Below the pieces are notes generated by a model. It did not search any database. It saw only the letters and a list, made by a program, of their open reading frames with translations, and had not been told where the DNA came from. Positions 34,953-53,735 of a stretch of 64,000 bases of DNA are shown here, one piece after another; position 1 is the stretch's first letter; each line of letters opens with the position of its first letter. The stretch is from Fusobacterium ulcerans (GTDB lineage: Bacteria > Fusobacteriota > Fusobacteriia > Fusobacteriales > Fusobacteriaceae), in NCBI RefSeq assembly GCF_003019675.1, contig NZ_CP028105.1:698282-762281 (forward strand), written 5' to 3'. The translations under genes were made by a program, and so were the position numbers.

Positions 34953-34958
34953 AAACAT

Positions 34959-37001: not shown

Positions 37002-38285
37002 TTACAAGTCCCAGTTTATTTTTTTAATATCTTCCTTCATTTTATCAAGAATTAATTCTTGATACCCTGCTCTTTTTTTATTTTTTACTTCTTCTATAAG
37101 CTCAATAAAGCAATCACTTTTTATCTTTTCTAATTTTTTCATACTTTCTTCTGAAATAATTTTTTCTGATATATTTAATTTATAATCTTCTATTGTAAAG
37201 CACCATGGAATTATTTTACTTCCTCTTCTTTGAATAAGCTTATCTGCTATCTCAATTCCTTCAGGATCAATATCTCCAGAATAATAAAGAGTACATCCTT
37301 TTCGACATAACATGTCTATTAAAATTAAAGAAGCTGTTTTTAGCTGACCTGAAGTGCATAATAAAGCTATTTCTTTATCTTTAAAATATTCACATAAGTA
37401 TGAAAATACCATCTGATTTTCCACAATAAAAACCTTTTTTCTTTTACAGTCAGCTTTTATTACTTTCTTCAAGTTAGACATAGTGATTATATATTCTTCT
37501 GATTGTTTTATAAATTCTTCATATGCTTGGTGAATTCCTTTTTCTGTATGAAGACTTATTCCAAAAGCAGTGGTGAAACTAGAGATAGTATCTACTTCTA
37601 TTCCTGAAATATAGTACAGCTCAAGAACTTTTTCCGCTTCTTTTGTATATTCCATATTATTAATATGAAACAGTAAATTTAAAAGGAGTTGTCCTGCTGG
37701 CATACCACGATCAAAATAGTGTGGATTAGAAGTTATTTCAGCTCCTAATATGGCTATTTTTATTCTTTCCTTTGATTTTTTTAAAAAATTTATAGCTTTT
37801 ATTGTAAAATATATCATATTTTCTGTTTCTGTATTATCAGCATCATGTTTATAAAATGATCCCTTATCCCTAATTATTTTTTCTAATAATTCAGCAGCAG
37901 TTTCATTATACTCTTCTGCTATTTTTAATCTCTCTTTTATATTTTGAAAAAAAATTTCCTTAGACATTTCTTTTTCTATCTTTTTTTCTTTTTTAGTAAT
38001 AATGCTCTCTGAAAAGTATCCCTCTAAAAGATCCATCAGTTCAATTTCTCTAAACCTTGATTCTTTTAAAACTTTTTCAAATTCAGATATTTTAAATTTT
38101 ATCTTATTTCCTTCCATTACTCTTCCCAGCAATCCTTTTATAGCTTCTACTTCAATTTTTTCTGGATTATCTATTACTATATTTCCAGAAAGTTTCCCAT
38201 AAGATATATATTTATCTTTTAGTTGCTGAAATATACGTTTATATCCTTTACTTTCTTTGAAATATCTAATACATTCATTCAACAT
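37002..38285 (-). CDS. jetD: Wadjet type II nuclease subunit JetD (TIGR02679)
   Basis: A 427-residue protein matching the TIGR02679/DUF2399 pattern. The N-terminal half is helical; the C-terminal half has a Toprim-like nuclease core: VFIVENQMVFSYL with a catalytic Glu, and YYSGDIDPEGIEIADKLI (about residue 335) with the DxD pair. JetD cleaves circular plasmid DNA that the JetABC motor has extruded. AGGAG is three bases from the first ATG and nine from the second, so 38285 is used. It follows jetC by about 15 bases and ends the operon. Confidence 0.92.
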   Translation of the reverse strand: MLNECIRYFKESKGYKRIFQQLKDKYISYGKLSGNIVIDNPEKIEVEAIKGLLGRVMEGNKIKFKISEFEKVLKESRFREIELMDLLEGYFSESIITKKEKKIEKEMSKEIFFQNIKERLKIAEEYNETAAELLEKIIRDKGSFYKHDADNTETENMIYFTIKAINFLKKSKERIKIAILGAEITSNPHYFDRGMPAGQLLLNLLFHINNMEYTKEAEKVLELYYISGIEVDTISSFTTAFGISLHTEKGIHQAYEEFIKQSEEYIITMSNLKKVIKADCKRKKVFIVENQMVFSYLCEYFKDKEIALLCTSGQLKTASLILIDMLCRKGCTLYYSGDIDPEGIEIADKLIQRRGSKIIPWCFTIEDYKLNISEKIISEESMKKLEKIKSDCFIELIEEVKNKKRAGYQELILDKMKEDIKKINWDL

Positions 38286-38300
38286 TAACATTTGCTCCTT

Positions 38301-41300
38301 TTACATCTCTAGAGTTTTTTTCTTTCCATCCCAATAGAAATGATTAACTTTTACCATTTTTAAATCTCTTCTATTTATTAATTCTGCTATTCTTAATTTT
38401 TTTACAGTTTCATAACATCCCCATAATATTTGTGAATTCATGATATAATCAAAATCAAGTTTGTCTATCAACTCAAACATACTGCTTATATTTTTATCAT
38501 CTATTCCTGCAAAAGCTTCGTCTAAAGCTATTATCCTTGGACAATCCTCTTTTGCTTTTTTATACTGAGCAGATGCTGCTGCTAATAAAGGAATATATAT
38601 TGACATCGCCTTTTCTCCACCACTAAATCTATTAAAAGCATTATTAGTCAGTTCTTTTTTATTCTCCCCTTCTCTATGATAATATATTCTAAATTCAAAC
38701 CATTCTCTATAGTCTAGAATCTCTCTTATAGAATCTATATAGTTTACTTCTTCGCCTTTAATTTCCATCTCTTCTCTAATTAAATTTAGTTTGCTTTTAA
38801 AATGTTCTGATATTTTCTGTAAGTCTTCAGCTGGCAATAACTTTCCATCTTTTCTTAATAATATTTCCAGCTCATTTATTTCTAATTCAGATTCATTAAG
38901 TTTTTCTTTAGGTTTCCATTCCATAGAAAATTTCATTTTCATAGATGTTTCCATTTCTGACATTATTTTAGACATTTCTTTTATCCATTTTCTACTCTCA
39001 TAAATCTGATCATTTAATTTATGTCCTATATTTCCTGATAAAATGTCTACTATAAGCTTTCTATCTTCTCTTTCAATAGCATATTCTCTCTGCTCAATTT
39101 CTTCACTAAGAATTTTTTCAAACTCATACAAAGATAATTTTTTACCATTATTAATCATTCTTATATATATTCTCTTCCTACAATACTCATAATCATCTTC
39201 AAAAATTTCTTCAGTAGCTGCCATGTATTCATACAATCTACTGCTGTTATCATTAAATTTTTTCATCAGAGATACAGTTATCCCCTCTGTTGTTTTTTCA
39301 CTATCTTTTACATTTTTGAGAATTTCTTCAAGAAGTTTTTCCTCTTCTCCTTTTTCATATTGCACTACATATCCTAAAGAAAGTTCTTCTTTGTAATATT
39401 CAAGTGTTTTTTCTACTGCTCTTTCTTTTGCTTCAACCTTTTTATTTTCAGAATTTAATATTTCTTCTCTTCCTTGAATAGTTGTATCAACTCTAATAAT
39501 ATTTCTATCTGCTTTATCATATTGTTCTTTTAGTTCTAACTTTTCTTCTTTAAGATTTTTTAATTTCTCTGCTGCTGCAACATTTTTAGGACTATTTAAA
39601 ACTTCTTGCAGTTTTTCTATAGCTTTTTGATATTTTTCTAATTCATTTTTCCCTTTTCTTATTTTATCTCTATAAAAATCTATTAATTCTTCCGATTTTC
39701 CTTCCATTTCTTCAGTTCTTATTATTTCATATTTAGAACTTTGATAGTTTCTTAATTGATTTTCAAGTTCATATATACTTTTCAGATATTCTTTTGAAGC
39801 TGTTTCTGCTTCTTTATACTCTGCTACCTTTTTCTCAAAAGGAAGTATTCTACATCTAGTTATTACCTTTTGATTCCATTCTCTATATTCGGTTTTAATT
39901 CTATTTAATTTATCTTCTCTTATTTCTAATTCATTTTTAATTTTTTGAAAAGCATATTCTATATCTTTTTTTAATTTTATACTTGTATCTAAATCATCAT
40001 ACAGAGGTACATTTTTATATTCTTCAATTAAAGCTGATATTTTATTAGATATATCTTCTATCATAAGATCAAAATTTTCTATTTCATGTAACAACTCTGC
40101 ACATTTTTCTTCTTTTTCTAAAATATATTTCTGTAATTTTTCTTTTCTTGTTTGAACCCCTATATATGAAGCTTCTTCTTTACTGCTACTGTACCCTTCT
40201 AAAACTCCATTTTTAAAATATCCATCTTTTTCTAAAATAATAATATCCTCATTTTTTTCTTGCTCTGATGGAGATATATTCTTAAAAAAGTCTTCTATAA
40301 CTTCTTTTACATTTTCCCTTATATTTTCAGCAACAAGTTTATTGTATTTAAAATTCTTGTCAGAATTTTTTTTACTAGTGATTATAATATCTGAATATTT
40401 ACTTATTATGTCCTTTGCTCTTTCTCTCTCTTCGTATGGAATAACTAAGGAATCAAGTATTCCACTATCTTTTAGTTGTGCTTCCAGTGTATTTCTTTCA
40501 ATCTCAGATAAATTTTCTGCAAAATCTACTGTTTCATAAAAAGCCATAAACTCTATGCCTGCCTTTTTCAAGTCTTTTCTGCATTGAATTACTTCATCTT
40601 TTCTCATTGGAACACTATCTTCCATATTCTTTAATTCCTCTAATTCTTTTAGTTCAATTTTATATTCTCTTGTTTTAACTGTTTTTATATGTCCTAACTC
40701 TATTTTTTCTTGCTGAAGTTCTTGGTTTTTCAAATTATAGTTTTTCTCTAATATTTTTTTTATTTCTCCAGCTTCTATCAATCCTTCATATTTTTTTATT
40801 AATTCAATAATTTTATCCAAATCACTTTTCGAAATTTTTAAAAACTCATTTTTCTCTTTTAAAATATAAAAATTTTCTACTAGATTATCTCTGGCTCTTT
40901 CTTCCATTCCTTGAGCCTTTAACATTTCATCTTCTATTCTATCTCTCTCGTTTCTATAACTATTTACTTCTTCCTCTTCTTTCTCTAAATCTTCTGACAA
41001 TTTTTTCATTTTCTCTAATGCTTCAAGACCTAGATTTATATTTTTTTGATAAACTTCCAAATTATTTTTTATGGACTCTAATTTTTCTGCTATTTCTTTC
41101 TGAAATATTTCATTTTCATCTTTTAAATGTCCTTCAAATAAAAGAGTTTCATTTATATCTTTCAATTCCTGATATATTTTTTTTATTTTATACTTTACAC
41201 TTTCTATTCTATTTTCTTCTTCTCTTTTTCTAATTCCTTGTCTCTTTAGCTCTGTATTGTGTTCTTCTAACTTGTCTTCCTCTTCTTTTATTTCTTTTTC

Positions 41301-42341
41301 TTTATTTTGAAATTCTCTTTTAGTAATCAACATTTCATTTACAGTTTTTTCTAAGTCAATAGATTCTAAAATTCTATTTTCCTGTTCTATATCTTCAATT
41401 CTTTTTTCTATTTTTACTTTAATTTCACTATTATCTTTAGATTCTTTTTCCAATTTTTCTATTTCTTTTATTAATTTATCTATGTTTTTTTTTAATATTT
41501 CATACTCTTTCTTTGCTTCAAAATATGTTATAGCTTTCTTCCCTAAAATAAATCTATTATATTTATCGTATTCTTTTTTTATAATATTTATACTTTTCTG
41601 AGCTTCTTTTTGCTCTTCATTTCTCTTCTGCATACTATCCATTTTTTCAAGGCTCTCTACAAGTACTCTCAAGTCTCTTTCTTCCAACACTTGTAATGAA
41701 TCATTCAGTATTTCGTAAACATTCATTGGCTTTATATCTGTAGATAGTTTAGATGTTCTTATTTTCAATAAAAATTTTATAAGCTTTTTATAATAGTTGA
41801 TATCACTAAAACCAAAAAGTTCTTTATTTATCATATCCATATAATCCCTTTGACCATATGCTATTTTATTCTTATCTCCCAATAATCTTTCTAATTCATT
41901 TTTAGATAGAGGGATTCTTTTATTTCCAATTTCTCTGTATAGTTTAAATTTTTCTCCTACTCTTCTTCCATCTGATAAAATAAATCCCCAAAAAGACATC
42001 TGCTTTCCTTTTTGTGCTCTCTGCCCTATTCCAATAGTAAGATATTGTTCCACATTTTCTTTTTTTAATTCAAGAAAAATATATCCTGTTTCGTCCTCTT
42101 TCTCTCCATCTCCTAAAAAATAGTATTCCATTTTTCTACTAGTAGAACCAAAAGTATCTAATCTTTCAGGGCTTCTATCCCCATCCAATATAAAACTTAC
42201 CACGCTTTGTGTTGTTATAGATTTTCCAGAACCATTAGTTCCTCTTATTAATATTTTCCCATTTTCCAAATTGAATATTTCTTCATCATATAACCAGAAA
42301 TTTATAAATCCTATTCTGTTCATTTTCCAACGATTATTCAT
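38301..42341 (-). CDS. jetC: Wadjet type II SMC-like ATPase JetC (TIGR02680)
   Basis: A 1346-residue SMC/MukB-like protein. Walker A is RGTNGSGKS (about residues 33-41). A very long charged coiled coil follows, broken near residue 600-680 by a hinge-like stretch (LKDSGILDSLVIPYEERERA, IGVQTRKEK). The C-terminal head has the ABC signature RFSGGEKAMSIYIPLLAAAS and Walker B PRIIALDEAFAGID at about residues 1240-1275. JetC dimers with JetA and JetB extrude DNA loops to detect small circular plasmids. The start overlaps the end of jetB by eight bases. Confidence 0.96.
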   Translation of the reverse strand: MNNRWKMNRIGFINFWLYDEEIFNLENGKILIRGTNGSGKSITTQSVVSFILDGDRSPERLDTFGSTSRKMEYYFLGDGEKEDETGYIFLELKKENVEQYLTIGIGQRAQKGKQMSFWGFILSDGRRVGEKFKLYREIGNKRIPLSKNELERLLGDKNKIAYGQRDYMDMINKELFGFSDINYYKKLIKFLLKIRTSKLSTDIKPMNVYEILNDSLQVLEERDLRVLVESLEKMDSMQKRNEEQKEAQKSINIIKKEYDKYNRFILGKKAITYFEAKKEYEILKKNIDKLIKEIEKLEKESKDNSEIKVKIEKRIEDIEQENRILESIDLEKTVNEMLITKREFQNKEKEIKEEEDKLEEHNTELKRQGIRKREEENRIESVKYKIKKIYQELKDINETLLFEGHLKDENEIFQKEIAEKLESIKNNLEVYQKNINLGLEALEKMKKLSEDLEKEEEEVNSYRNERDRIEDEMLKAQGMEERARDNLVENFYILKEKNEFLKISKSDLDKIIELIKKYEGLIEAGEIKKILEKNYNLKNQELQQEKIELGHIKTVKTREYKIELKELEELKNMEDSVPMRKDEVIQCRKDLKKAGIEFMAFYETVDFAENLSEIERNTLEAQLKDSGILDSLVIPYEERERAKDIISKYSDIIITSKKNSDKNFKYNKLVAENIRENVKEVIEDFFKNISPSEQEKNEDIIILEKDGYFKNGVLEGYSSSKEEASYIGVQTRKEKLQKYILEKEEKCAELLHEIENFDLMIEDISNKISALIEEYKNVPLYDDLDTSIKLKKDIEYAFQKIKNELEIREDKLNRIKTEYREWNQKVITRCRILPFEKKVAEYKEAETASKEYLKSIYELENQLRNYQSSKYEIIRTEEMEGKSEELIDFYRDKIRKGKNELEKYQKAIEKLQEVLNSPKNVAAAEKLKNLKEEKLELKEQYDKADRNIIRVDTTIQGREEILNSENKKVEAKERAVEKTLEYYKEELSLGYVVQYEKGEEEKLLEEILKNVKDSEKTTEGITVSLMKKFNDNSSRLYEYMAATEEIFEDDYEYCRKRIYIRMINNGKKLSLYEFEKILSEEIEQREYAIEREDRKLIVDILSGNIGHKLNDQIYESRKWIKEMSKIMSEMETSMKMKFSMEWKPKEKLNESELEINELEILLRKDGKLLPAEDLQKISEHFKSKLNLIREEMEIKGEEVNYIDSIREILDYREWFEFRIYYHREGENKKELTNNAFNRFSGGEKAMSIYIPLLAAASAQYKKAKEDCPRIIALDEAFAGIDDKNISSMFELIDKLDFDYIMNSQILWGCYETVKKLRIAELINRRDLKMVKVNHFYWDGKKKTLEM

Positions 42342-43479
42342 CTTTTTCCCCTTTTATTGGCTTTAATCTTTTAGAGTATGCTCCTGTTATCTTTCCAACT
42401 GCTGGATATATAGCTATCTTTTCTCCCTCTACTTCAGCCAGCATCCAGCTTTCCATATATTCTATAATATTATCAAATATTTTTTCAATTTTCATCTCTC
42501 TATATTCTTTGCTCCAATTTATTCCGTATCTATTTTTACATTCTTCCATCATATCTTCCATTTCTTTTTTAGAAATATATACAATATCATTTAATTCTTT
42601 TTTCACTTCTTTATTAATTACTTTTTTTCTTACTTCATTACATAGTAAAAGTACTAATTCTGCCAGCATAGTTCCTTTAGGGTGGATTTCTCCAATCTTA
42701 TCCTTATTATCAAATATCAGAAAAGCTCCATTTTTATGTATATGAAGTTTTCCATTAAAAAATTTACCCAATCCTTTTTCAATAACAGGTTTTTGATTTT
42801 TTATATAGATTCTATCCTGATCGTTTGTTTCATTCCAATAGATTGCAGGTGTAGTCAATAGTTTTCTATATACTCTATTAGTTCTAAAATCTCCTCTATT
42901 TATATCTATATTTTCATTTCTTTCTATTTCAAAATCTTCATATGAAGTGTATTTCATTATATCTTTTTCGAAATTAACTGAAAAATATCTTGAAAGACCT
43001 GTTTTTTCATATAGAACTTCTATTTCTTCATCCTCTCCATATTTTTTTATATTTCCCTCAGTCTTATCTATTACTCTTATTCTTTCAGCATATTCAAAAA
43101 CTCTTACTAAAGATTTTCTATGTGTAAATTTTGTCCAATCTATCTCTAGCAAATCTTTTAAATAAAATTCTATTCTGTCAGTCATCTCTTTTAAAAGAAA
43201 TTGTTCTCCATCTTCTCTGTCTTCAAGAAACATCAATAGTCCACATAATATACAATAGTCCATCTTATCTTGAAATTCATTTATTCCCATAAAAGATTCC
43301 GCTTTTGCAGGTATTTTTTCTACTTTTATTACCTTTTCAGTAAAAAGTGTTTTCCAACCAGTTCTTTCTATATAGAACTTTTCTATTTCCTTTCTTTCTT
43401 TTTTAATTTCAAAATATTCTTCTTTATTTTTATCTCTATCTATCCAAAAATTTTCCAGTAAAAGTCTTATTTCTTTCAC
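42334..43479 (-). CDS. jetB: Wadjet type II subunit JetB (TIGR02678)
   Basis: A 381-residue protein of the TIGR02678 family, the KITE-like (MukE/MksE-like) subunit of the motor. The N-terminal LLLENFWIDRDKNKEEYFEIKKE, RVFEYAERIRVID and YRKLLTTPAIYW are family landmarks. The start is a GTG at 43479, one base after the jetA stop, with GGAGG six bases upstream inside jetA. The frame stays open 19 codons further but that would lie within jetA. It overlaps jetC by eight bases, so jetA-B-C are translated in step. Confidence 0.92.
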   Translation of the reverse strand: MKEIRLLLENFWIDRDKNKEEYFEIKKERKEIEKFYIERTGWKTLFTEKVIKVEKIPAKAESFMGINEFQDKMDYCILCGLLMFLEDREDGEQFLLKEMTDRIEFYLKDLLEIDWTKFTHRKSLVRVFEYAERIRVIDKTEGNIKKYGEDEEIEVLYEKTGLSRYFSVNFEKDIMKYTSYEDFEIERNENIDINRGDFRTNRVYRKLLTTPAIYWNETNDQDRIYIKNQKPVIEKGLGKFFNGKLHIHKNGAFLIFDNKDKIGEIHPKGTMLAELVLLLCNEVRKKVINKEVKKELNDIVYISKKEMEDMMEECKNRYGINWSKEYREMKIEKIFDNIIEYMESWMLAEVEGEKIAIYPAVGKITGAYSKRLKPIKGEKDE

Positions 43480-43480
43480 T

Positions 43481-44974
43481 CTAATCCTCCAAAAATTCAA
43501 ATATATATTTAGACATTTCCAAGTTACCATCTTCACACTTCAATACAAATTTTTCTTTCATTTCTGACATTTTATATTTTTGACCATACTCTGTTCTTCC
43601 TGTTTTTTCTACAGATATATTTGCACTTGTTATAAGATTTAATATAAATATTCTGAATTCTGAAGATATATTTTCATCTATTTTTGAAATATCTAAAATT
43701 CCATTTTGTAAGTACTTCATTATCATTTCTCTATCTTCTTCTAATTTTTTCTTATAGAGTAATGACAATTCTTCTTTAAGCTTTTTTCTATCTTCAAAAC
43801 CTGTTTTCTCTATCTTTGGTTTATATGTTCTATTATGCGATTCTAAAATATATTCCATATACTCTTCATCGTAAGCACTATTTTCAGAACTATCTGTACT
43901 TCTAGGAATATCCATTCCATAATGTCTTATATTTTGTATTCCAAAAATATGTGCCGAAAGTTTATGAGCTTCATCCATGTCTTCACATTCTATAAACATT
44001 TTAATAAATTTTTTATATTCCTCTTTCTTGTTTACTCCCCAATTTTGCTTTTGAGTTATAAAAAAAGCATTTTGAATTATTTTTCCTATTATCTCCTCAG
44101 TTATATCCATTACCTGTCTGTATTCACTTTTTCTCATTCCGCTGGATCCAAACCAATTTTTTAACGACTCCCATTTCCCTCTAATATTCTCTCCAATTTC
44201 ATCTTCAAATTCTTTATCTTTTTTTAATTCTTTGCTCAAATTTAATTCTTGGTTTTTTACCTCATTTTTTATTATATAATCTAAAATTCCCTTTTCCATA
44301 TCATCTTTTATATTATCTATAGTAGTTTCCATTTTACTGCTGTTTATTTGTAATTCTCTTACAAAATTTCTTAAAATAGATATAAATTTTTCTTTATATA
44401 CAATAAACTCTATAGTTTTCATTAAATTTTCTGTTTTCTTAGTATAAAATTCTCTTAAATAATCTTGATAATTTTGATTTAATTTTCTAAAATCTTCTTG
44501 AAGATTCTCCCAATATTCATAAATTTCATCATAATTTTCTTTTTTATTAAAAAGTAATCTTATTTTTTCTAATGCTTCCTGCATTCTAGGAATATAATTA
44601 GTAGATAAATTTCCTGTTTCAAAATAAAGATTTTCTAGACTCACAGTCATTCTTTCTATGATTACTGATTTTTCACTCATAGAATATCTATATTCTCTAT
44701 TTTTAAATTCTGCTATAGTATAAACTTTTCTAGAATCCTGTATAGCGGTTAAATTTTTCCATTCTACCAATATATCCAAATCTGATTTCAACTCATCTAT
44801 TGTATAACCATCAAATTCTGAATACTTTTTTATTTCTTCAAAAATATCTTCTTTATATAATTGAAATTTCATTTTTTCGTATTCACGAAAAAATACTCTC
44901 ATTATTCTTCTGTAATAAATTGTTTTTTGAGTAGAAAGATATGAAGTTTCTTTTATCTGATCTAAAATATCCAT
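43481..44974 (-). CDS. jetA: Wadjet type II subunit JetA (TIGR02677)
   Basis: A 497-residue protein of the TIGR02677 family, the kleisin-like (MukF/MksF-like) subunit that bridges the JetC heads. ISSLxxxx-type N-terminal winged-helix sequence includes YRRIMRVFFREYEKMKF and LKSDLDILVEWKNL; the middle is helical; DIPRSTDSSEN and the C-terminal FILNLITSANIS with GNLEMSKYIFEF close the domain. It opens the operon behind a GAGGAG site and an extended -10 promoter. Confidence 0.92.
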   Translation of the reverse strand: MDILDQIKETSYLSTQKTIYYRRIMRVFFREYEKMKFQLYKEDIFEEIKKYSEFDGYTIDELKSDLDILVEWKNLTAIQDSRKVYTIAEFKNREYRYSMSEKSVIIERMTVSLENLYFETGNLSTNYIPRMQEALEKIRLLFNKKENYDEIYEYWENLQEDFRKLNQNYQDYLREFYTKKTENLMKTIEFIVYKEKFISILRNFVRELQINSSKMETTIDNIKDDMEKGILDYIIKNEVKNQELNLSKELKKDKEFEDEIGENIRGKWESLKNWFGSSGMRKSEYRQVMDITEEIIGKIIQNAFFITQKQNWGVNKKEEYKKFIKMFIECEDMDEAHKLSAHIFGIQNIRHYGMDIPRSTDSSENSAYDEEYMEYILESHNRTYKPKIEKTGFEDRKKLKEELSLLYKKKLEEDREMIMKYLQNGILDISKIDENISSEFRIFILNLITSANISVEKTGRTEYGQKYKMSEMKEKFVLKCEDGNLEMSKYIFEFLED

Positions 44975-45047: not shown

Positions 45048-45084
45048 AAAAAGGCCATAGACAAATTAAATTATCTACAGCCAT
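45048..45084 (-). terminator. Rho-independent terminator of the sulfatase operon
   Basis: On the minus strand GGCTGTAGA pairs with TCTATGGCC (two G-U pairs) around a 12-base loop and is followed by five T. It lies just past the sulfatase stop. Confidence 0.82.
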
Positions 45085-45099
45085 TAAAAATTTTACTTT

Positions 45100-46464
45100 T
45101 TAATTATATGAAACATAGTCATTTTTATTTTTACTTGAAGCAGTTTCACATTCTACCTTGTTAACTTTGTATCCCTTCTTTATTTCAAGAGCACCTTTCA
45201 AGATAGGATCATCAGTCTTTACCTGTTTTTCATACAATACTTTTCTTAACTTTTCCAAAACTTCTTGGTATTTAGAATCATCTGCTAGATTATTTCTTTC
45301 TGTTGGATCAAAATAAAGATCAAAAAGTCCTTCTTTGTATTTAATCTTCTCTTTTAATCCATTTTTCATCAAGAAATCTTTTGGTACAGATTCATCCATG
45401 TTTGAAAGATTTACTTTATTCCAAGTTTCATCATAGTATTTTATATATTTGTAACGTTTTGTTCTTACACATCTTATAGGCTCATATGATGTATGAAAAT
45501 TAACTTCAGCAAATATATATTCATCAAGAACAGCTTTGTTATCTGCAAAAGCTTCAGCAAAAGATTTCCCTTCTAAGTATTCAGGTTTATCCAGATTTAG
45601 AAGTTCACAAAGTGTAGGAAATACATCTATCTGTGAAACAAGACTATCTACAATCTTTCCATTAGAAGCAGCTTCAGGAACTTTCATTATCAATGATACT
45701 CCGATTCCAGTATCAGTAAGATTACATTTGTTAAATGGAACAGCCAGTCCATGATCTGTTGTAAAAATTATAATAGAATTTTCATAAAGATTATTTCTCT
45801 TTAAAGCATCTACTATCATTTTTATATTTTCATCTGCATAGTGAGCAGTTGTCATATACTGTGCATGATCATGCCTATTTTCCTCATTGTTAGTAATTGG
45901 ATAAGGAGGAACTACATATCTTTCATCTATGAAATCAGCTACCTCCATAGGATATGGCCTGTGAGTGCTGTGCATTCCAAAAGACAGAAGAAATGGTTTG
46001 TCATTCTCATAGTTATCCAGCCATTTAACTACTTCTACAGCATTATTTCTATCCCACAAATGAAGTTCTTCTTTCTTAAATGGTTTAGAATCAGTTGTAA
46101 TAATTTCATTATATCCTAAATTATGCAGTCCATTTTTTTCTAAATCAAGATACCATCCATATTCATGCTGTATTCCACATAAACATGTATTATATCCATT
46201 ATTTTTTAAAAAATTGGCTAAATGCTTCTCTGGATTATAAAGAGAAAATCCTCTTTGAGCCAATCCAAGCATTCCATTTTGATGGGGAAAAATTCCTGTC
46301 AAAAGAGCAGCTCTGCTTGGTGAACAAGTAGGTCCTGCACAGAAAGCATTTGTAAAGACTACAGAATCTTCTGCAAGTTTTTTTAAATTTTCAGTAGGAA
46401 TATCATATCCATAAGGGCTTAACATTCTTCCACTGTCATGTGTATTTATATATATAACATTCAT
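45100..46464 (-). CDS. Sulfatase, formylglycine type, without signal peptide
   Basis: A 454-residue arylsulfatase-family hydrolase. The active-site motif CSPSRAALLTG (about residues 46-56) gives the Cys that must be turned to formylglycine. Metal ligands are likely in INTHDSGR at the start and in IIFTTDHGLAV. There is no signal peptide, so it should work in the cytoplasm, unlike most glycan sulfatases. It is last in an operon with a PTS permease and NanE, pointing to a sulfated amino sugar already imported and phosphorylated. The maturase needed to make formylglycine is not in this window. Confidence 0.88.
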   Translation of the reverse strand: MNVIYINTHDSGRMLSPYGYDIPTENLKKLAEDSVVFTNAFCAGPTCSPSRAALLTGIFPHQNGMLGLAQRGFSLYNPEKHLANFLKNNGYNTCLCGIQHEYGWYLDLEKNGLHNLGYNEIITTDSKPFKKEELHLWDRNNAVEVVKWLDNYENDKPFLLSFGMHSTHRPYPMEVADFIDERYVVPPYPITNNEENRHDHAQYMTTAHYADENIKMIVDALKRNNLYENSIIIFTTDHGLAVPFNKCNLTDTGIGVSLIMKVPEAASNGKIVDSLVSQIDVFPTLCELLNLDKPEYLEGKSFAEAFADNKAVLDEYIFAEVNFHTSYEPIRCVRTKRYKYIKYYDETWNKVNLSNMDESVPKDFLMKNGLKEKIKYKEGLFDLYFDPTERNNLADDSKYQEVLEKLRKVLYEKQVKTDDPILKGALEIKKGYKVNKVECETASSKNKNDYVSYN

Positions 46465-46483
46465 CTGTTACTGATAGCCTCCT

Positions 46484-48016
46484 TTATTTTACAAATATAG
46501 GTGAACTCCATGCAGCTCCACCATCTTTCTGCCACACTCTCACTCTAATATTTGAAACATTAGTAGTATCTATAGTTTTTTCTATTTTTCTTGTGTATCC
46601 TGAAACAGGAACAGCTTTAGAAAGTTTTATCTTATATGCATTGTGCCACCAAGGATCAGTTCTGTAATACTCAGTGAAGTTAAAGCTGTCTTTCAAAAGA
46701 GCTTCTGCCTCTTCCAATAATGGTATCAGTCTAGAAGATTCAAACAGTTCCTTCACTTCGAGTTTATACTCTTTTCCATCAACTATTAAAGTAACAAAAC
46801 TATCAATAGGAGCTGATATTTCAAATATAAATCCTTCTGTAGTAACTGCACTAGGCCCCATCCATTTTCCTGTAGCTGTTGTTTTATATGAAGTCAAATC
46901 AAATTTACAGCTGTTTTCTGTCACATCATAAAGACGCTGACCGAAGTTGCTCCAACATTTCTCAATAGATAGAATTTTTCCTTCTGTTGAAAGAGAACCT
47001 CTCCAGTTTCTTGAATTTATATCAGGAAATATCCTTCTGTCTGGTCCCCATCCAAATTCTGCTTTAAATTTAAATCGAACATTTTTACCAAGAGATTCCT
47101 TTTCCCATGTTGAAGTATGAGGAATCATTTCAGTTGTGATGTTGTCTTCTATAATTTCTATTCTATCTATTGCATTTGAAGCTTCTACATTAAGTACAAG
47201 TTTAGAGTCTTTTTTTGGAGTTACACTCCCCCCCATAGTAGTATCATCTATTAAAAAATCTACTTTTATTCTATCTTTGCTTACTCCATAGACTCTTTTA
47301 TTTATAAAGGCATCCCAAATACTTTCTTTTGTATTATCCTCAGCAAGTACAGCAATGTAACCAAAACCATATACTCCAGGAACAGAATGGTTATCACCAG
47401 AAGCTATAACTCCAAATTGATGCCCTTTCTCCCATCCTTTTTCTACAGCTGTTACTCCTGTTCTAGGTCCCATATGAATATGTCTGTCCATTGTAAATTG
47501 ACTTTCATCATTTTCACTTGAACCATGTGATGAGTAAATTTCTACAAATGGCGAAAACTTATCATTATGTGTTTCCCAGTTTTTTCCTCTATGACCAAGT
47601 TCATAAGCTAGGTGATGCGGAATAGCTATAGAACTTATTTCTCTGAAGTTTTTTTCAAGCTCTGAATATCTAAGAGGAAAATATGGATTTTGATCATTTC
47701 CTAAAAAGAAAACATTATGATCTCCATCTTTTCCAGCTCCCTGCCATTCATACCCCATGAACATAGGAAACCCTTCTTTATTAACTTTTTCAGTAAACTC
47801 TCTTATATATTCCCAATCAGCCTGTACTTTATCCATAGGATAAATATCCTCTACTCCCAGTCCACACTCATCTTTTCTCATATAATATGGATAATATGCA
47901 AATGGCCAGAAATCAAAAATATCTTTTACCTGTTCAAACCATGCAGGTAATTTATCTATGCTTTCGTGATGCAGATTACTATGCATATCACTCCATAATA
48001 TTTTGTATTTGTTCAT
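46484..48016 (-). CDS. PHP/DUF3604-like metal-dependent hydrolase
   Basis: A 510-residue soluble protein. The N-terminal WSDMHSNLHHES gives a His-x-Asn-x-His metal motif, and later IAIPHHLAYELGH, EIYSSHGSSEN and VIASGDNHSVPG give further His/Asp ligands in the order of PHP-type phosphoesterases and DUF3604 proteins. The C-terminal 250 residues look like beta-rich domains (VNVEASNAIDRIEIIEDN). No signal peptide is seen. It stands between nanE and the sulfatase. The reaction is unknown; it may remove or rearrange a group on the same imported sugar. Confidence 0.65.
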   Translation of the reverse strand: MNKYKILWSDMHSNLHHESIDKLPAWFEQVKDIFDFWPFAYYPYYMRKDECGLGVEDIYPMDKVQADWEYIREFTEKVNKEGFPMFMGYEWQGAGKDGDHNVFFLGNDQNPYFPLRYSELEKNFREISSIAIPHHLAYELGHRGKNWETHNDKFSPFVEIYSSHGSSENDESQFTMDRHIHMGPRTGVTAVEKGWEKGHQFGVIASGDNHSVPGVYGFGYIAVLAEDNTKESIWDAFINKRVYGVSKDRIKVDFLIDDTTMGGSVTPKKDSKLVLNVEASNAIDRIEIIEDNITTEMIPHTSTWEKESLGKNVRFKFKAEFGWGPDRRIFPDINSRNWRGSLSTEGKILSIEKCWSNFGQRLYDVTENSCKFDLTSYKTTATGKWMGPSAVTTEGFIFEISAPIDSFVTLIVDGKEYKLEVKELFESSRLIPLLEEAEALLKDSFNFTEYYRTDPWWHNAYKIKLSKAVPVSGYTRKIEKTIDTTNVSNIRVRVWQKDGGAAWSSPIFVK

Positions 48017-48034
48017 AACTTTTCACCAACCTAT

Positions 48035-48763
48035 CTAGTATTTTAATGGAATTTTTCTTTTATATTTATTCATAATACTTGTAAATCTCAATGTTGTCAG
48101 ATGAGGTCTTGTGATTGCACTTCCAATTACAACAGCATGAGCTCCAAGATAAAGGCTCTGAATCGCTTCTTCTGGAGAAGAAATTTTTCCTTCCATAATT
48201 ACAAGTCCAAGTCCTTCACAAGCTTCTACAATTCTTGCTAATTCTTCAAAATCTGGAGAATCAGTAGATTTTGGATTATCATTAAATCTATACAGTGTAG
48301 GAGCAACCATATGAGCCCCCATCTTTAATGCCTCTCTTGCTTCTTCAGCATTTCTGATATCTGCAAGTATCAGTAGCTCTGGATATTTTTCTTTTATTTC
48401 AGAAATGATTTCATAGGTTTTTTTTCCATAGCTGTTCACCCTATTTGTAGCATCAACTGCTATGATATCAGCTCCAGCTTTTACTATTTCATCTACTTCT
48501 CTCATTGTTGGAGTGATAAATACATCTTCTGTTTCAATATTTATCTTCCACAAACCAATAATTGGTTTATTAGTAATTTTTCTTATTTTTGCTATATTTT
48601 CAGGTGTATCTATTCTATATCCACAGGCATCTCCCCATTCACCACACATTACCAGTTTTTCAATTATTTCTGGGAGATAAAGTGGGTCAGTCTTTTTTAC
48701 CTGACAAGATAAAATCAAACCATTTTTTATATCTTCTATTATTTTTTTATTTTTATCATTCAT
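48035..48763 (-). CDS. nanE: N-acetylmannosamine-6-phosphate 2-epimerase
   Basis: A 242-residue TIM-barrel enzyme that converts ManNAc-6-phosphate to GlcNAc-6-phosphate. ILSCQVKKTDPLY at the start, KPIIGLWKINIE, ITPTMREVDEIVKAGADIIAVDAT, LADIRNAEEAREALKMGAHMVAPTLY and MEGKISSPEEAIQSLYLGAHAVVIGSAITRP are NanE landmarks with the catalytic Lys. The ATG at 48763 is used; a GTG three codons earlier sits close to the GAGGA site and cannot be excluded. It follows the PTS gene and feeds amino sugar into central metabolism. Confidence 0.93.
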   Translation of the reverse strand: MNDKNKKIIEDIKNGLILSCQVKKTDPLYLPEIIEKLVMCGEWGDACGYRIDTPENIAKIRKITNKPIIGLWKINIETEDVFITPTMREVDEIVKAGADIIAVDATNRVNSYGKKTYEIISEIKEKYPELLILADIRNAEEAREALKMGAHMVAPTLYRFNDNPKSTDSPDFEELARIVEACEGLGLVIMEGKISSPEEAIQSLYLGAHAVVIGSAITRPHLTTLRFTSIMNKYKRKIPLKY

Positions 48764-48793
48764 AAGAATCACTATCCTCGTATGTATTATGGA

Positions 48794-50368
48794 TTATAAT
48801 GTAGCAACATATTCATCAATTTCTGTTCTTATTAAGTTTACTGTCGGTCCATAAATTATTTGAAGATTTTTTCCTCTAGTAACAACATTGTGTGCCCCTG
48901 TTTGTTTTAATAGATCAATATTTACTTTATCAAGTTTCTTAACTGATACTCTCAATCTAGTAGCACAGTTATCAAGGTCAGCAATATTTTCCATTCCTCC
49001 AAGAGCTTCAATTATAGTTTTTGCTTCTCCAGAAGTATATTTTCCTTTTAGGCTTTTCTCTTGTTCTTCATCATCTTCTCTTCCTGGAGTTTTAGCATTT
49101 AATTTTTCTATCAGAAATTTGAATAAGAAATAGTTTACTACAAATATAGGAATTCCTAAGATAAGTATCCATATATAATTAGTTTTCGAATTTCCTTGGA
49201 AAACTCCAAATAGTAAGAACTCAACTAATCCAGCTGAGAAAGTAGAACCTATTGTAATCTTAGCTATTGCTGCAATAACGAAAGATATTGCGAAAGATAC
49301 TGCTTCTGCTACGAAAAGTAAAGGTGACGCAAATAACAGAGCAAATGATATAGGTTCAGTAACTCCAGTTAGGAAACTTGTAAGTCCAATAGAAAGCAGG
49401 AATCCAAATGTAGCTTTTCTTTTTGATCCTTTTGGAATTGCTGTATACATAGCTAAACAAATAGCTGGCATTGTGAATATCATATGGAAATATCTTCCAC
49501 TATTATAAAGAGCAATATTTGAGAAATAACGAACTGTATTGTGGTCTGCTAATTGAGCAAGGAAAATACTCTGCCATCCTTCAATAACTTTTCCACCTAC
49601 TTCTAAAGTTCCTCCAGCTGCTGTAGTCCAGAATGGAAGATAGAATACATGATGAAGTCCCAGAACATAGAATCCTCTAAGAACCAGTCCATACATAAAT
49701 GCTCCAAATATTCCTAAACCTTGAGTCATAACTCCAAAATAAGCTATCATGGCAGCTATTGCTGGCCAAACAAAAACCATAATTAAAGATACAAACATAA
49801 ACACAACAGTATTAACTATAGGAACAAATCTAGCTCCACCAAAGAAAGCTAATACATCAGGAAGTTTAGTCTTGTAGTATTTATTATGAACTACACCAGT
49901 TACAATACCAGCAAGAACTCCTCCAAAAACATTCATATTAAGGGTTTTTATTCCAAATTGTACAGCTTGTCCATAAAGACGGATATCTGCCCCAGCAGGA
50001 GCTTCCTTTCCAAATATACTGATGAATGCTCCTGTTCCTGTTAAAAGAACAAAATAACCAACAACTGCTGAAAGTCCAGCAGAACCTTTTTCATTTTTTG
50101 CTAACCCAGCAGCAATACCCACAGCAAAAATTAATGGCAATGCAGCAAAAACCCCATTTCCTACAGCATTCATCAACTTAAGCAAACCTTGCAGCACTGA
50201 ATTATCCAAAACAGAATAAGCTTTTATAACCGCTCCAGATGATAGTGCAGCAGAAATTCCAAGTAAAAGCCCTGCTACTGGTAAAATTGAAATAGGCATC
50301 ATTATTGCCTTACCCAGTTGTTGTCCCAAGTTAAAAAGATTGTCTTTTAAACTAACTTTCCCTTCCAT
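48794..50368 (-). CDS. PTS permease EIICB, glucose/N-acetylglucosamine/maltose family
   Basis: A 524-residue membrane protein. The EIIC domain (about residues 10-410) has roughly ten hydrophobic helices with PISILPVAGLLLGISAAL, LHHVFYLPFWTTAAGG and SFLTGVTEPISFALLFASPLLF, the sugar-binding glutamate loop. After a charged linker the EIIB domain carries NCATRLRVSVKK with the phosphorylated Cys. No EIIA domain is fused, so a general EIIA must serve it. The true start is the ATG at 50368 behind GGAGG; the frame is open 11 codons more. With NanE downstream, an N-acetylated amino sugar is the likely cargo. Confidence 0.9.
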   Translation of the reverse strand: MEGKVSLKDNLFNLGQQLGKAIMMPISILPVAGLLLGISAALSSGAVIKAYSVLDNSVLQGLLKLMNAVGNGVFAALPLIFAVGIAAGLAKNEKGSAGLSAVVGYFVLLTGTGAFISIFGKEAPAGADIRLYGQAVQFGIKTLNMNVFGGVLAGIVTGVVHNKYYKTKLPDVLAFFGGARFVPIVNTVVFMFVSLIMVFVWPAIAAMIAYFGVMTQGLGIFGAFMYGLVLRGFYVLGLHHVFYLPFWTTAAGGTLEVGGKVIEGWQSIFLAQLADHNTVRYFSNIALYNSGRYFHMIFTMPAICLAMYTAIPKGSKRKATFGFLLSIGLTSFLTGVTEPISFALLFASPLLFVAEAVSFAISFVIAAIAKITIGSTFSAGLVEFLLFGVFQGNSKTNYIWILILGIPIFVVNYFLFKFLIEKLNAKTPGREDDEEQEKSLKGKYTSGEAKTIIEALGGMENIADLDNCATRLRVSVKKLDKVNIDLLKQTGAHNVVTRGKNLQIIYGPTVNLIRTEIDEYVATL

Positions 50369-50427: not shown

Positions 50428-50478
50428 ATTATAATTCATAAAAAATAACTTGTCAATACAAATTATATGTTGTATTAT
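50428..50478. promoter_or_regulatory. Overlapping divergent promoters with an operator-like inverted repeat
   Basis: Minus strand: TTGACA (50451-50456), 17 bases, TATAAT (50428-50433), a perfect consensus promoter for the PTS operon. Plus strand: TTGTCA (50450-50455), 17 bases, TATTAT (50473-50478), for the GntR/UTRA gene. The two -35 boxes overlap. The inverted repeat AATACAA-8-TTGTATT (50455-50476) lies in the plus-strand spacer and touches both -35 boxes, so one bound repressor could close both promoters. Confidence 0.8.
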
Positions 50479-50540: not shown

Positions 50541-51260
50541 ATGGAAGATAAAAAAGTTTCAAAATATCAAATGGTAGAAAGTTACATAGTGGAAGGAATT
50601 CAAAGCAATCATTACAAAGTTAATGATATTCTTCCAACAGAGGCAGAATTAGCTGAAAAATTTAATTGTTCCAGAGTTACAGTTCGTCAAGCCCTAAGTA
50701 ATCTGGCATATAAAGGAATTATATACAGAATACAGGGAAAAGGTTCTTTTGTATCTAAAGAAAATACTCTAAAGCGTTCCCCTCTTTTGAAAAGTTTTAC
50801 AGAAGATATTCTTGATATGGGAAAAAAACCATGGTCTGTAGTGGAAACTTTTTATATAACAAAAGTTGGAGAGCATATAGGAAGAATAATGGGATTGAAA
50901 CCTACAGATAAGATTTATTATATTGAAAGAGTCAGATTTGCAGATAATGACCCTATCCTATTTGAAAAAACATATATGGAAATATCTAAACATCCCGAGA
51001 TTTCTGTTAAAATATTGGAAGGCTCTAAGTATGAATATGCAAAAGAACATGGAATGGAAATAGCTATTTCATATCAAAATATAACTCCTGTATTTCCTCC
51101 AGAAAGTATAGCTGAAAAATTAAAAATTTCTGCTAAAACACCTATTTTAAAGCTATCAAATGTTACTTATTTATCTAATGGAGAACTTTTTGATTACAAT
51201 GAATTATATATGAATACAGAGTTATATCAACTCAATATAGTAAAAAAAGTAGAAAAATAA
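50541..51260 (+). CDS. GntR family regulator with UTRA ligand domain (HutC subfamily)
   Basis: A 239-residue regulator. Residues 8-75 are the winged helix (PTEAELAEKFNCSRVTVRQALSNLAYKGIIYRIQGKGSFV); the rest is a UTRA domain (LLKSFTEDILDMGKKPWSVVE, IYYIERVRFADNDPILFEKTYM, LKLSNVTYLSNGELFDYNELY) that usually binds a sugar phosphate. It is transcribed away from the PTS-nanE-sulfatase operon with shared control DNA, so it very likely represses that operon and itself. The start has an AAGGAGATAATATT site. Confidence 0.9.
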   Translation: MEDKKVSKYQMVESYIVEGIQSNHYKVNDILPTEAELAEKFNCSRVTVRQALSNLAYKGIIYRIQGKGSFVSKENTLKRSPLLKSFTEDILDMGKKPWSVVETFYITKVGEHIGRIMGLKPTDKIYYIERVRFADNDPILFEKTYMEISKHPEISVKILEGSKYEYAKEHGMEIAISYQNITPVFPPESIAEKLKISAKTPILKLSNVTYLSNGELFDYNELYMNTELYQLNIVKKVEK

Positions 51261-51665: not shown

Positions 51666-53735
51666 ATGAATTTTAAAAGACTAGCTCTACATTCTTTGTT
51701 AATTTCAACTACAGTTTTTGCTAATTCAAATTCTGATAATTCTAGTGGAATAAATCTAGGAAATACTGTTATTTATTCCAGTACTGGTTTCGAGACTACT
51801 GTAAGGGATGTAGCAAGTAATCCAACTATTGTAGTAAGCGAAACAATTGAAGAAAAACATTATCCATCAATTGAAGATGTTTTGAAAGATGTTCCTACAG
51901 TTAATGTTCAGTACCAAATGGGAATGCCTGTAATAGATATGAGAGGACAGGGAATGGCAAAAGCTATGACTAATGTACAGCTTTTAGTTGATGGTATCCG
52001 TGCAAATGCTTCAGATACTTCCCATGTAGGGACTCCTGTAAATACTGTTTCTGTCAGCCAGATAGAAAGAATTGAAGTAATTCCTGGTGGTGGAGCAGTT
52101 CTCTATGGAAGCGGAACTTCTGGAGGAGTAATAAATGTCATAACTAAAAAACAGACTGGACCAAGAGCAACTGCTGGATATAGTTATGGGAACTATAGAG
52201 GAAATACTTATGAAGTTTCTGCTGGACATACAATTGGAAAACTTGATATAGATTTAGGCTATACAAGAAAAGAAGTTAAGGGATACAGAAAGTATAATGA
52301 AGAAGATTCAGATTATTTCAGTGGTAAACTTAGATATGATATATCAGATGATCATTCTCTTACTTTTAGATATTCAAAATACAACAGTGATTCTGAAATT
52401 CCTAACTCTTTAACTAAAGCTCAGTTAGAAGATAGCAGAAAACAACATGGAAAAAAACCTGGAGATATTGATGAGTGGGATAGAGATAAAGATGAGTTTT
52501 CACTAGAATATGCAGGAAAAATAAATGATAATATTGAATTGAACTTAGTAGGATATTTCCAAGATACTGATATGCACTATAAAATGCTCACTGCTGCAAC
52601 TAACATGAATATGAAAGCTGCCTTTGATGATGAAAAAAAAGGTGCAATAGCAAAGTTAAAATATAAATATGGAAATGACAGCAGTGTTATCTTTGGACTG
52701 GAATATATCGATAATGAACTTCACAGAAAACAAAATATGTATATGGAAAGAATGGGTACTACAATCCCTATGGCTAATATCGATCTAAAAGCTACTAAAG
52801 AATCTATTAGCGGCTTTGTGTTAAATACATATAAATATCAGGATTTTGAATTTATTCAAGGATTCAGATATGAAAAAGCTGACTATGATATGAAGAGAAA
52901 AAGTTTTGGGAATAAATTGGATCTTGATGGTAATACAAAAGATGCAGATAATTTTGCAGTTGAGTTAGCAGTAAATTATCTATACTCTGACACTGGTAAT
53001 GTATATTTAAAATATGAGAGAGGGTTTACTTCCCCTGCTCCTGCTTTAATCACAAATAGATATGCTACTACTCATCCAGATCCTACAAAAGCTGGTGTAT
53101 ACTACTTTAATGACCTTGATTCTGAAACTTACAATACTTTTGAGTTAGGATTCAGAGATACATTTGGAATTTCAGAATTAAATGGAGCTGTTTTCTATAC
53201 TCTGACAAATGATGAAATCAGAAGTTCAGGACATGCTTCTAATACTCAGCATTCAATAGAAAATATAAATCTGGATAAAACAGAAAGATATGGTTTTGAA
53301 CTTTCAGCTAAACAGGAAGTAGGGAAATTTACTTTTAATGAAAGTTATAATTATGTCCATGCAAAAGTAAAAAAAGCTGATGATAATGGAGAAAAATTAG
53401 ATGGAAAGAGAATTGCTTATGTCCCTAATCATAAACTTTCTTTAGGTGTATTATATTCTTTCAATGAGAGATTCAATATTGGTGGAGATGTTGTTTATAA
53501 GAGTGCAACTTATCTAACAAACAATAATGAAGGCGGAAAGAAAAATGCTCATGTTGTAGCTAATATCAGAGCTAACTTTAAAGCAACTGAAAGCCTTAAT
53601 CTATATGCTGGTGTAAACAATGTATTTGATAAAAAATACTATGATTATGTTTCATATAGTTCTTCTACTAATGAATTTTTATATGACCCTGCATATGAAA
53701 GAAATTATTATGTAGGATTTAAATTCCAGTTTTAA
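51666..53735 (+). CDS. TonB-dependent outer-membrane receptor
   Basis: A 689-residue outer-membrane protein. A signal peptide (MNFKRLALHSLLISTTVFA) is followed by the plug domain: EDVLKDVPTVNVQYQMG, IDMRGQGMAKAMTNVQLLVDGI, IERIEVIPGGGAVLYGSGTSGGVINVITKK (about residues 80-170). Alternating beta strands form the barrel to the end, with late landmarks LYAGVNNVFDKKYYDY and a C-terminal Phe after NYYVGFKF for outer-membrane assembly. Such receptors import iron chelates, haem or cobalamin with TonB energy. The ligand is not evident, and no ABC transporter or TonB gene is adjacent. Confidence 0.93.
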   Translation: MNFKRLALHSLLISTTVFANSNSDNSSGINLGNTVIYSSTGFETTVRDVASNPTIVVSETIEEKHYPSIEDVLKDVPTVNVQYQMGMPVIDMRGQGMAKAMTNVQLLVDGIRANASDTSHVGTPVNTVSVSQIERIEVIPGGGAVLYGSGTSGGVINVITKKQTGPRATAGYSYGNYRGNTYEVSAGHTIGKLDIDLGYTRKEVKGYRKYNEEDSDYFSGKLRYDISDDHSLTFRYSKYNSDSEIPNSLTKAQLEDSRKQHGKKPGDIDEWDRDKDEFSLEYAGKINDNIELNLVGYFQDTDMHYKMLTAATNMNMKAAFDDEKKGAIAKLKYKYGNDSSVIFGLEYIDNELHRKQNMYMERMGTTIPMANIDLKATKESISGFVLNTYKYQDFEFIQGFRYEKADYDMKRKSFGNKLDLDGNTKDADNFAVELAVNYLYSDTGNVYLKYERGFTSPAPALITNRYATTHPDPTKAGVYYFNDLDSETYNTFELGFRDTFGISELNGAVFYTLTNDEIRSSGHASNTQHSIENINLDKTERYGFELSAKQEVGKFTFNESYNYVHAKVKKADDNGEKLDGKRIAYVPNHKLSLGVLYSFNERFNIGGDVVYKSATYLTNNNEGGKKNAHVVANIRANFKATESLNLYAGVNNVFDKKYYDYVSYSSSTNEFLYDPAYERNYYVGFKFQF

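What the first reader, a model, noticed from the sequence alone, without database searches (positions are those of the whole stretch)
45100..50368. PTS-NanE operon with a cytoplasmic sulfatase and PHP/DUF3604-like enzyme
The sulfatase has the CSPSR formylglycine motif but no export signal, and its neighbours import and process an amino sugar inside the cell. Most glycan sulfatases act outside. A route is suggested in which a sulfated amino sugar is taken in by PTS, desulfated as the phosphate ester, handled by the PHP-like enzyme and epimerised by NanE. I know of no named pathway with this exact set.
Basis: inference. Interest (0 to 1): 0.6.

Follow-up and report, generated by a model that had tools for sequence, protein, structure and literature searches.

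The report
PTS operon with a cytoplasmic sulfatase
A gut-type anaerobe carries a compact, widely shared but uncharacterised operon that probably imports a small sulfated amino-sugar-like compound and removes its sulfate inside the cell with an unsecreted sulfatase, next to a conserved metallohydrolase of unknown reaction and a variant sugar epimerase.

Summary
One minus-strand transcription unit (consensus promoter, four tightly spaced genes, terminator) encodes a Glc-family PTS EIIBC, a NanE-family epimerase, a DUF3604/PHP-like metallohydrolase and a leaderless CSPSR sulfatase, with a divergent GntR/UTRA regulator. The maturase, a free EIIA-Glc, NagA and a NagB-family gene lie elsewhere in the genome. 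The set is not a one-off: of 40 loci fetched from other genomes through the metallohydrolase, 29 carry the same sulfatase family; in Fusobacteriota all 8 genomes with that sulfatase have the metallohydrolase. Related operons add maturases, a TauE/SafE anion exporter, a second leaderless sulfatase, NagB or sugar isomerases. Cytoplasmic desulfation after uptake is therefore well supported. Every operon NanE keeps the catalytic residues but has an altered N-acetyl pocket (GY to RF), so its substrate may not be plain ManNAc-6-P. A pneumococcal island with PTS, NanE-like protein, sulfatase, maturase and TauE is a published precedent of unknown substrate. A paralogous sulfatase lies in an ascorbate PTS operon.

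The parts
45053..45082 (-). intrinsic terminator-like hairpin (12 pairs) and T tail after the sulfatase gene
   Evidence: sequence
45100..46464 (-). leaderless formylglycine-type sulfatase (GPTCSPSR), closest end-to-end to S1_8 sulfatases and SGSH
46484..48016 (-). DUF3604 / PHP-like metallohydrolase, distant relative of CehA/McbA; conserved D10,H12,H16,E90,H100,H134,H135,E159,D208,H210
48035..48763 (-). NanE-family 2-epimerase paralogue; catalytic Gln/Arg/Lys/Asp/Glu/Arg kept, N-acetyl contact GY changed to RF (ORF opens at 48772 with GTG; ATG at 48763)
48794..50368 (-). PTS EIIC-EIIB of the glucose superfamily (GlcB/MalX/NagE-like, below every equivalog cut-off)
50428..50456 (-). operon promoter TTGACA-17-TATAAT, 12 of 12
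50455..50476 (.). inverted repeat AATACAA-N8-TTGTATT overlapping the -35 of the operon promoter and the divergent gntR promoter, conserved in the four sequences compared; probable GntR operator
50450..50478 (+). divergent gntR promoter TTGTCA-17-TATTAT
50541..51260 (+). GntR/UTRA (HutC-type) regulator, divergent

Best explanation
This is a GntR-controlled catabolic operon for a small sulfated 2-amino-sugar-like compound. EIIBC (with EIIA from elsewhere in the genome) imports it and probably phosphorylates C6; the leaderless sulfatase, matured by the unlinked radical-SAM enzyme, removes a sulfate that is not on C6 (2-N, 3-O or 4-O) in the cytoplasm; the DUF3604/PHP-like enzyme makes one further hydrolytic cut, my best guess being an acyl, amide or glycosidic-type bond on the same molecule; the NanE variant inverts C2 so that the product reaches GlcNAc-6-P/GlcN-6-P and the NagA/NagB route; released sulfate is exported, by TauE/SafE where it is linked. 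Shown by sequence: gene set, unit boundaries, leaderless sulfatase, maturase, recurrence. Inferred: substrate, order of steps, sulfate position, metallohydrolase reaction.
For: Operon anatomy. No leader on the sulfatase in the 20 aligned relatives (some ORF starts there are over-extended by the mechanical ORF rule). Maturase at C1:1265720, 407.8 bits against a cut-off of 349; 7 of 8 fusobacterial genomes with this sulfatase have the maturase against 32 of 98 overall, P about 0.0015 by counting genomes (related genomes are not independent). Sulfatase in 8 of 98 genomes, all inside the 12 with a close relative of the metallohydrolase. 29 of 40 genome-contig loci carry the same sulfatase family. 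TauE/SafE near the sulfatase in L024, L054/L055, L081/L082 and L083; FGE and radical-SAM maturases in L054, a radical-SAM maturase in L024. Amino-sugar partners: NanE (L025, L030, L042 and 5 fusobacteria), NagB (L054, L055), SIS-type isomerases (L024, L057, L058). The PTS co-varies with the sulfatase in Fusobacteriota: EIIBC is 54-98% identical where the sulfatase is present and 33-36% where it is absent. NagA, a NagB-family gene and two EIIA-Glc domains in the genome. The same sulfatase family in an ascorbate PTS operon with TauE shows PTS coupling in a second setting.
Against: No biochemistry. The metallohydrolase occurs without the sulfatase in 11 of 40 loci (some of them cut by contig ends) and 4 of 12 fusobacterial genomes, so sulfate removal is not its constant partner. 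TctABC replaces the PTS in 9 loci, four of them with the sulfatase. No TauE gene was found beside the window operon itself. NanE, NagB and SIS genes are each present in only some loci. The maturase search found none in G027, whose metallohydrolase gene is also split. One S1-type lysine (Lys123 of SGSH) is Ile98 here.
Confidence: 0.55

Rival explanations
1. The sulfatase is a sulfamidase: the PTS brings in N-sulfoglucosamine (a heparan/heparin monosaccharide) and the enzyme makes GlcN-6-P directly.
For: Full-length similarity to SGSH and an SGSH_C domain hit; NagB without an adjacent NagA in L054; operon NanE has a new Arg beside the N-acetyl contact, which would suit an anionic N-group.
Against: The Arg282 that marks SGSH is Lys246, invariant in 20 relatives, as in O-sulfatases. 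Direct GlcN-6-P formation would not need NanE.
Confidence: 0.2
2. The substrate is not an amino sugar but a sulfated sugar acid, lactone or similar anion, and NanE is re-used for another C2 epimerisation.
For: TctABC carriers in 9 loci; lactonase-like, creatininase-like and KDPG-aldolase genes beside L058; near-identical sulfatase active-site motifs in an ascorbate (ula) operon.
Against: NanE, NagB and SIS-type sugar isomerases are the recurrent downstream enzymes; all NanE catalytic residues are kept.
Confidence: 0.2
3. The protein is a phosphodiesterase or phosphonate monoester hydrolase of the alkaline phosphatase superfamily rather than a sulfatase.
For: Metal ligand His238 in place of Asn and loss of Lys123, as in phosphonate monoester hydrolase BcPMH.
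Against: TauE/SafE, FGE and anSME partners in relatives; best full-length matches are S1_8 sulfatases.
Confidence: 0.08
4. The operon scavenges sulfur from sulfate esters rather than carbon.
For: Sulfatases can serve sulfur supply (general knowledge, not tested here).
Against: Dedicated PTS, amino-sugar enzymes, and an anion exporter beside relatives.
Confidence: 0.05

Closest known systems
S. pneumoniae accessory PTS-sulfatase island (ROK, cellobiose-family PTS, NanE-like protein, sulfatase, sulfatase modifying factor, TauE; PMC3283741)
   Same: PTS, a NanE-like protein, a sulfatase, a maturase and TauE in one locus; substrate unknown there too
   Different: Lac-family PTS and ROK regulator; no DUF3604-type protein reported; its sulfatase sequence was not compared here
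Bifidobacterium breve GlcNAc-6-sulfate use (from memory, not read here)
   Same: intracellular sulfatase acting after uptake of a sulfated amino sugar
   Different: not a PTS operon and no DUF3604/NanE pair as I recall it; not tested
SGSH / S1_8 sulfatases
   Same: end-to-end alignment; FGly Cys, Arg, two His and two Asp conserved
   Different: Arg282 is Lys, Lys123 is Ile, first metal Asp is His, Asn274 is His; no leader
NanE (F. nucleatum, C. perfringens, S. aureus)
   Same: Gln11, Arg40, Lys63, Asp124, Glu180, Arg208 kept
   Different: N-acetyl contact Tyr149 is Phe with Gly to Arg beside it; a separate canonical NanE with an NanA-like gene exists in the same genome
Streptococcal hyaluronan PTS route (PMC9067506)
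   Same: host-glycan piece imported and phosphorylated by PTS, processed in the cytoplasm
   Different: needs an unsaturated glucuronyl hydrolase; no GH88 in this genome

Membership tests
Type I formylglycine sulfatase (S1) | C-x-P-S-R motif | tested here: met
   GPTCSPSR in the window protein; CSPSR invariant in 20 relatives
Type I formylglycine sulfatase (S1) | maturase in the genome | tested here: met
   TIGR03942, 407.8 bits over a cut-off of 349
Type I formylglycine sulfatase (S1) | full S1 active-site set (Asp, Asp, Arg, Lys, His, His, Asp, Asn, Lys/Arg) | tested here: inconclusive
   kept: Asp10, Arg51, His100, His168, Asp237, Lys246; changed: His9, Ile98, His238 (alignment reading)
Sulfamidase (SGSH) | Arg at the position of Arg282 | tested here: not met
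   Lys246, invariant in 20 relatives
NanE (ManNAc-6-P 2-epimerase) | catalytic Gln, Arg, Lys, Asp, Glu, Arg | tested here: met
   alignments against PMC8482478
NanE (ManNAc-6-P 2-epimerase) | Tyr contact for the acetamide methyl | tested here: not met
   Phe, with Arg in place of the preceding Gly, in 8 of 8 operon NanEs; GY in all 24 other NanEs aligned
NanE (ManNAc-6-P 2-epimerase) | activity on ManNAc-6-P | not testable with these tools
   needs assay
PHP / DUF3604 / CehA-McbA metallohydrolase | family profile match and metal-ligand pattern | tested here: met
   DUF3604 in 28 of 31; CehA_McbA 41 bits (below its cut-off of 80) in L057; conserved His/Asp/Glu set
PHP / DUF3604 / CehA-McbA metallohydrolase | fold | not tested
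Glc-family PTS transporter | EIIC and EIIB domains, plus an EIIA in the genome | tested here: met

The most novel reading that the evidence does not exclude
A widespread, unnamed pathway in gut Firmicutes and Fusobacteriota in which small sulfated amino-sugar derivatives are taken up by PTS or TctABC and desulfated in the cytoplasm, with a new metallohydrolase activity (DUF3604 clade) as the constant core and a NanE re-tooled for a non-acetyl C2 substituent; the same sulfatase family also serves an ascorbate-sulfate PTS pathway.
Probability: 0.3. Interest if true: 0.72.

Novelty: new variant of a known kind. Interest (0 to 1): 0.5.

Why it matters
Sulfated host glycans are usually thought of as desulfated outside the cytoplasm. 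A recurrent PTS-plus-leaderless-sulfatase module would be a selfish way for non-Bacteroides gut anaerobes to use sulfated sugars freed by others. It would give a function to a DUF3604/PHP clade and to the pneumococcal colonisation island whose substrate is unknown.

Tried and rejected
GAG disaccharide route with unsaturated glucuronyl hydrolase: no GH88 in the genome. Sulfamidase as first choice: Arg282 is Lys. NanE as the ordinary sialic-acid gene: a separate canonical NanE with an NanA-like gene exists, and the operon copy has its own pocket pattern. Papers on DUF3604: one unrelated hit; no paper names this set. In the table the column headed D124 is another conserved Asp; the true Asp124 equivalent is the Asp of ADIR, conserved.

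Full report
Observation. Pfam and NCBIfam give PTS EIIC+EIIB of the glucose superfamily, a NanE-family epimerase, a DUF3604-like protein and a formylglycine sulfatase. Gaps are 30, 18 and 19 bp. The EIIBC start at 50368 has a GGAGG site. A consensus promoter (TTGACA-17-TATAAT, 12/12) lies at 50456-50428, a divergent promoter serves the GntR/UTRA gene, and an inverted repeat AATACAA-N8-TTGTATT at 50455-50476, conserved in the four sequences compared, overlaps both. A terminator-like hairpin follows the sulfatase at 45082-45053. The unit is therefore regulator | operator | EIIBC-nanE-DUF-sulfatase | terminator.

Organism and genome. The window lies in a 3.54 Mb single-contig genome. A Cetobacterium contig (L046) has the same 7046-base length and gene order as the G014 locus of the same family, so the family is Fusobacteriaceae; genus Fusobacterium is my inference. 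Elsewhere in the genome: anaerobic sulfatase maturase (C1:1265720), three other sulfatases, NagA, a NagB-family gene, two EIIA-Glc domains (one in a 171-codon frame), and a canonical NanE downstream of an NanA-like gene. There is no GH88 unsaturated glucuronyl hydrolase.

Sulfatase. It starts MNVIYINTHD and relatives start the same way, so there is no leader. It aligns end to end with S1_8 sulfatases and, more weakly, with human sulfamidase SGSH. Compared with the SGSH paper PMC4014121: FGly Cys, Arg74, His125, His181, Asp32, Asp273 are kept; Asp31 is His9, Lys123 is Ile98, Asn274 is His238, and Arg282 is Lys246. The last is the residue that paper uses to set the N-sulfatase apart, so an O-sulfatase is more likely, though not certain.

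NanE. Positions in PMC8482478 were mapped through the C. perfringens sequence: residue counts there reproduce Arg43, Lys66, Tyr75, Asp126 and Glu180, and put the acetamide-methyl contact Tyr149 (S. aureus) at the Tyr of the LxGYT motif. In the 8 NanEs that sit beside the metallohydrolase (5 Fusobacterium-group, 3 Firmicutes) this is YRF, while all 24 other fusobacterial NanEs aligned have xGY; the catalytic residues are kept in all. This is a clean operon-specific change in the pocket for the C2 substituent; that it reflects an anionic or otherwise different N-group is inference.

Metallohydrolase. 31 relatives align over their length with an invariant set D10, H12, H16, E90, H100, H134, H135, E159, D208, H210 and a conserved C-terminal domain. 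28 of 31 match DUF3604; one matches CehA/McbA at 41 bits. An AlphaFold model has pLDDT 91, but fold comparison was closed. Its reaction is unknown. It is the constant part of the module: partners include Man-family EIIABCD, Glc-family EIIBC, a sucrose-type EIIBC with GH4 and NagB, TctABC, and an AEC carrier.

Recurrence. In 40 loci fetched with the metallohydrolase, 29 carry the same sulfatase family and 15 a second leaderless sulfatase nearest to choline sulfatases. In 98 Fusobacteriota genomes the sulfatase (50% identity or more) occurs in 8, all among the 12 with a close relative of the metallohydrolase; the hypergeometric figure is 3e-9, but related genomes are not independent. In Fusobacteriota EIIBC is 54-98% identical where the sulfatase is present and 33-36% where it is absent, which suggests that the transporter follows the sulfated substrate. 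TauE/SafE genes, an FGE and radical-SAM maturases lie beside several related operons.

A second setting. In G090 and G088 a paralogous sulfatase (51% identity) follows an ascorbate-type EIIC and EIIB and precedes TauE; in G090 the same run holds UlaG, UlaD, 3- and 4-epimerases and a second sulfatase with its own PTS parts. Its active-site motifs match the window enzyme. Ascorbate-2-sulfate is the obvious candidate, by inference only. It shows that this sulfatase family is coupled to PTS uptake in more than one pathway.

Mechanism. Best reading: PTS uptake of a small sulfated 2-amino-sugar-like compound, cytoplasmic desulfation, a hydrolytic step by the metallohydrolase, C2 inversion by NanE, then NagA/NagB. 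A Glc-family PTS would phosphorylate C6 (family knowledge), so the sulfate should be elsewhere. Because TctABC replaces the PTS in four loci that keep the sulfatase (L044, L045, L052, L053), desulfation of a phosphate ester is not a fixed feature.

Known context. A pneumococcal island with PTS, NanE-like protein, sulfatase, modifying factor and TauE was described in 2012; mutants were attenuated in colonisation, and no substrate or sulfatase activity on 4-methylumbelliferyl sulfate was found (PMC3283741). So the idea of a PTS-sulfatase locus is not new; the DUF3604 core, the NanE pocket change and the wide spread are what I add.

Noticed in passing
L134:7401-14170 with L138:1-6104 (G090); L133:7051-10941 (G088): Ascorbate-type PTS operon carrying two leaderless sulfatases (one paralogous to the window's) and TauE in G090; a candidate ascorbate-2-sulfate pathway. 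G088 shows the EIIC-EIIB-sulfatase-TauE part.
   Followed up: partly
window 37002-44974: Type II Wadjet defence genes (JetA2, JetB2, JetC2; the JetD position at 37002-38291 was not tested) directly downstream of the sulfatase. Close relatives L084 and L085 have what looks by eye like a type I restriction-modification set in the same place.
   Followed up: partly
window 31224-34958: 1244-aa protein that looks like a BREX BrxC ATPase (by eye), next to the Wadjet genes.
   Followed up: no
L135:3102-8655: NanE-like protein (45% identity, APTLYGY pocket) in an operon with a glycyl radical enzyme and Man-family EIIABCD.
   Followed up: partly
L012 and L023 (G027): Metallohydrolase gene split in two frames in this relative, and no maturase found there; decay or assembly error.
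   Followed up: no
window 51666-53735: TonB-dependent receptor nearest to heme/siderophore receptor families, downstream of gntR.
   Followed up: no
L058:396-3523: Lactonase-like (PTE), creatininase-like, KDPG-aldolase and SIS genes upstream of the metallohydrolase-sulfatase pair.
   Followed up: partly
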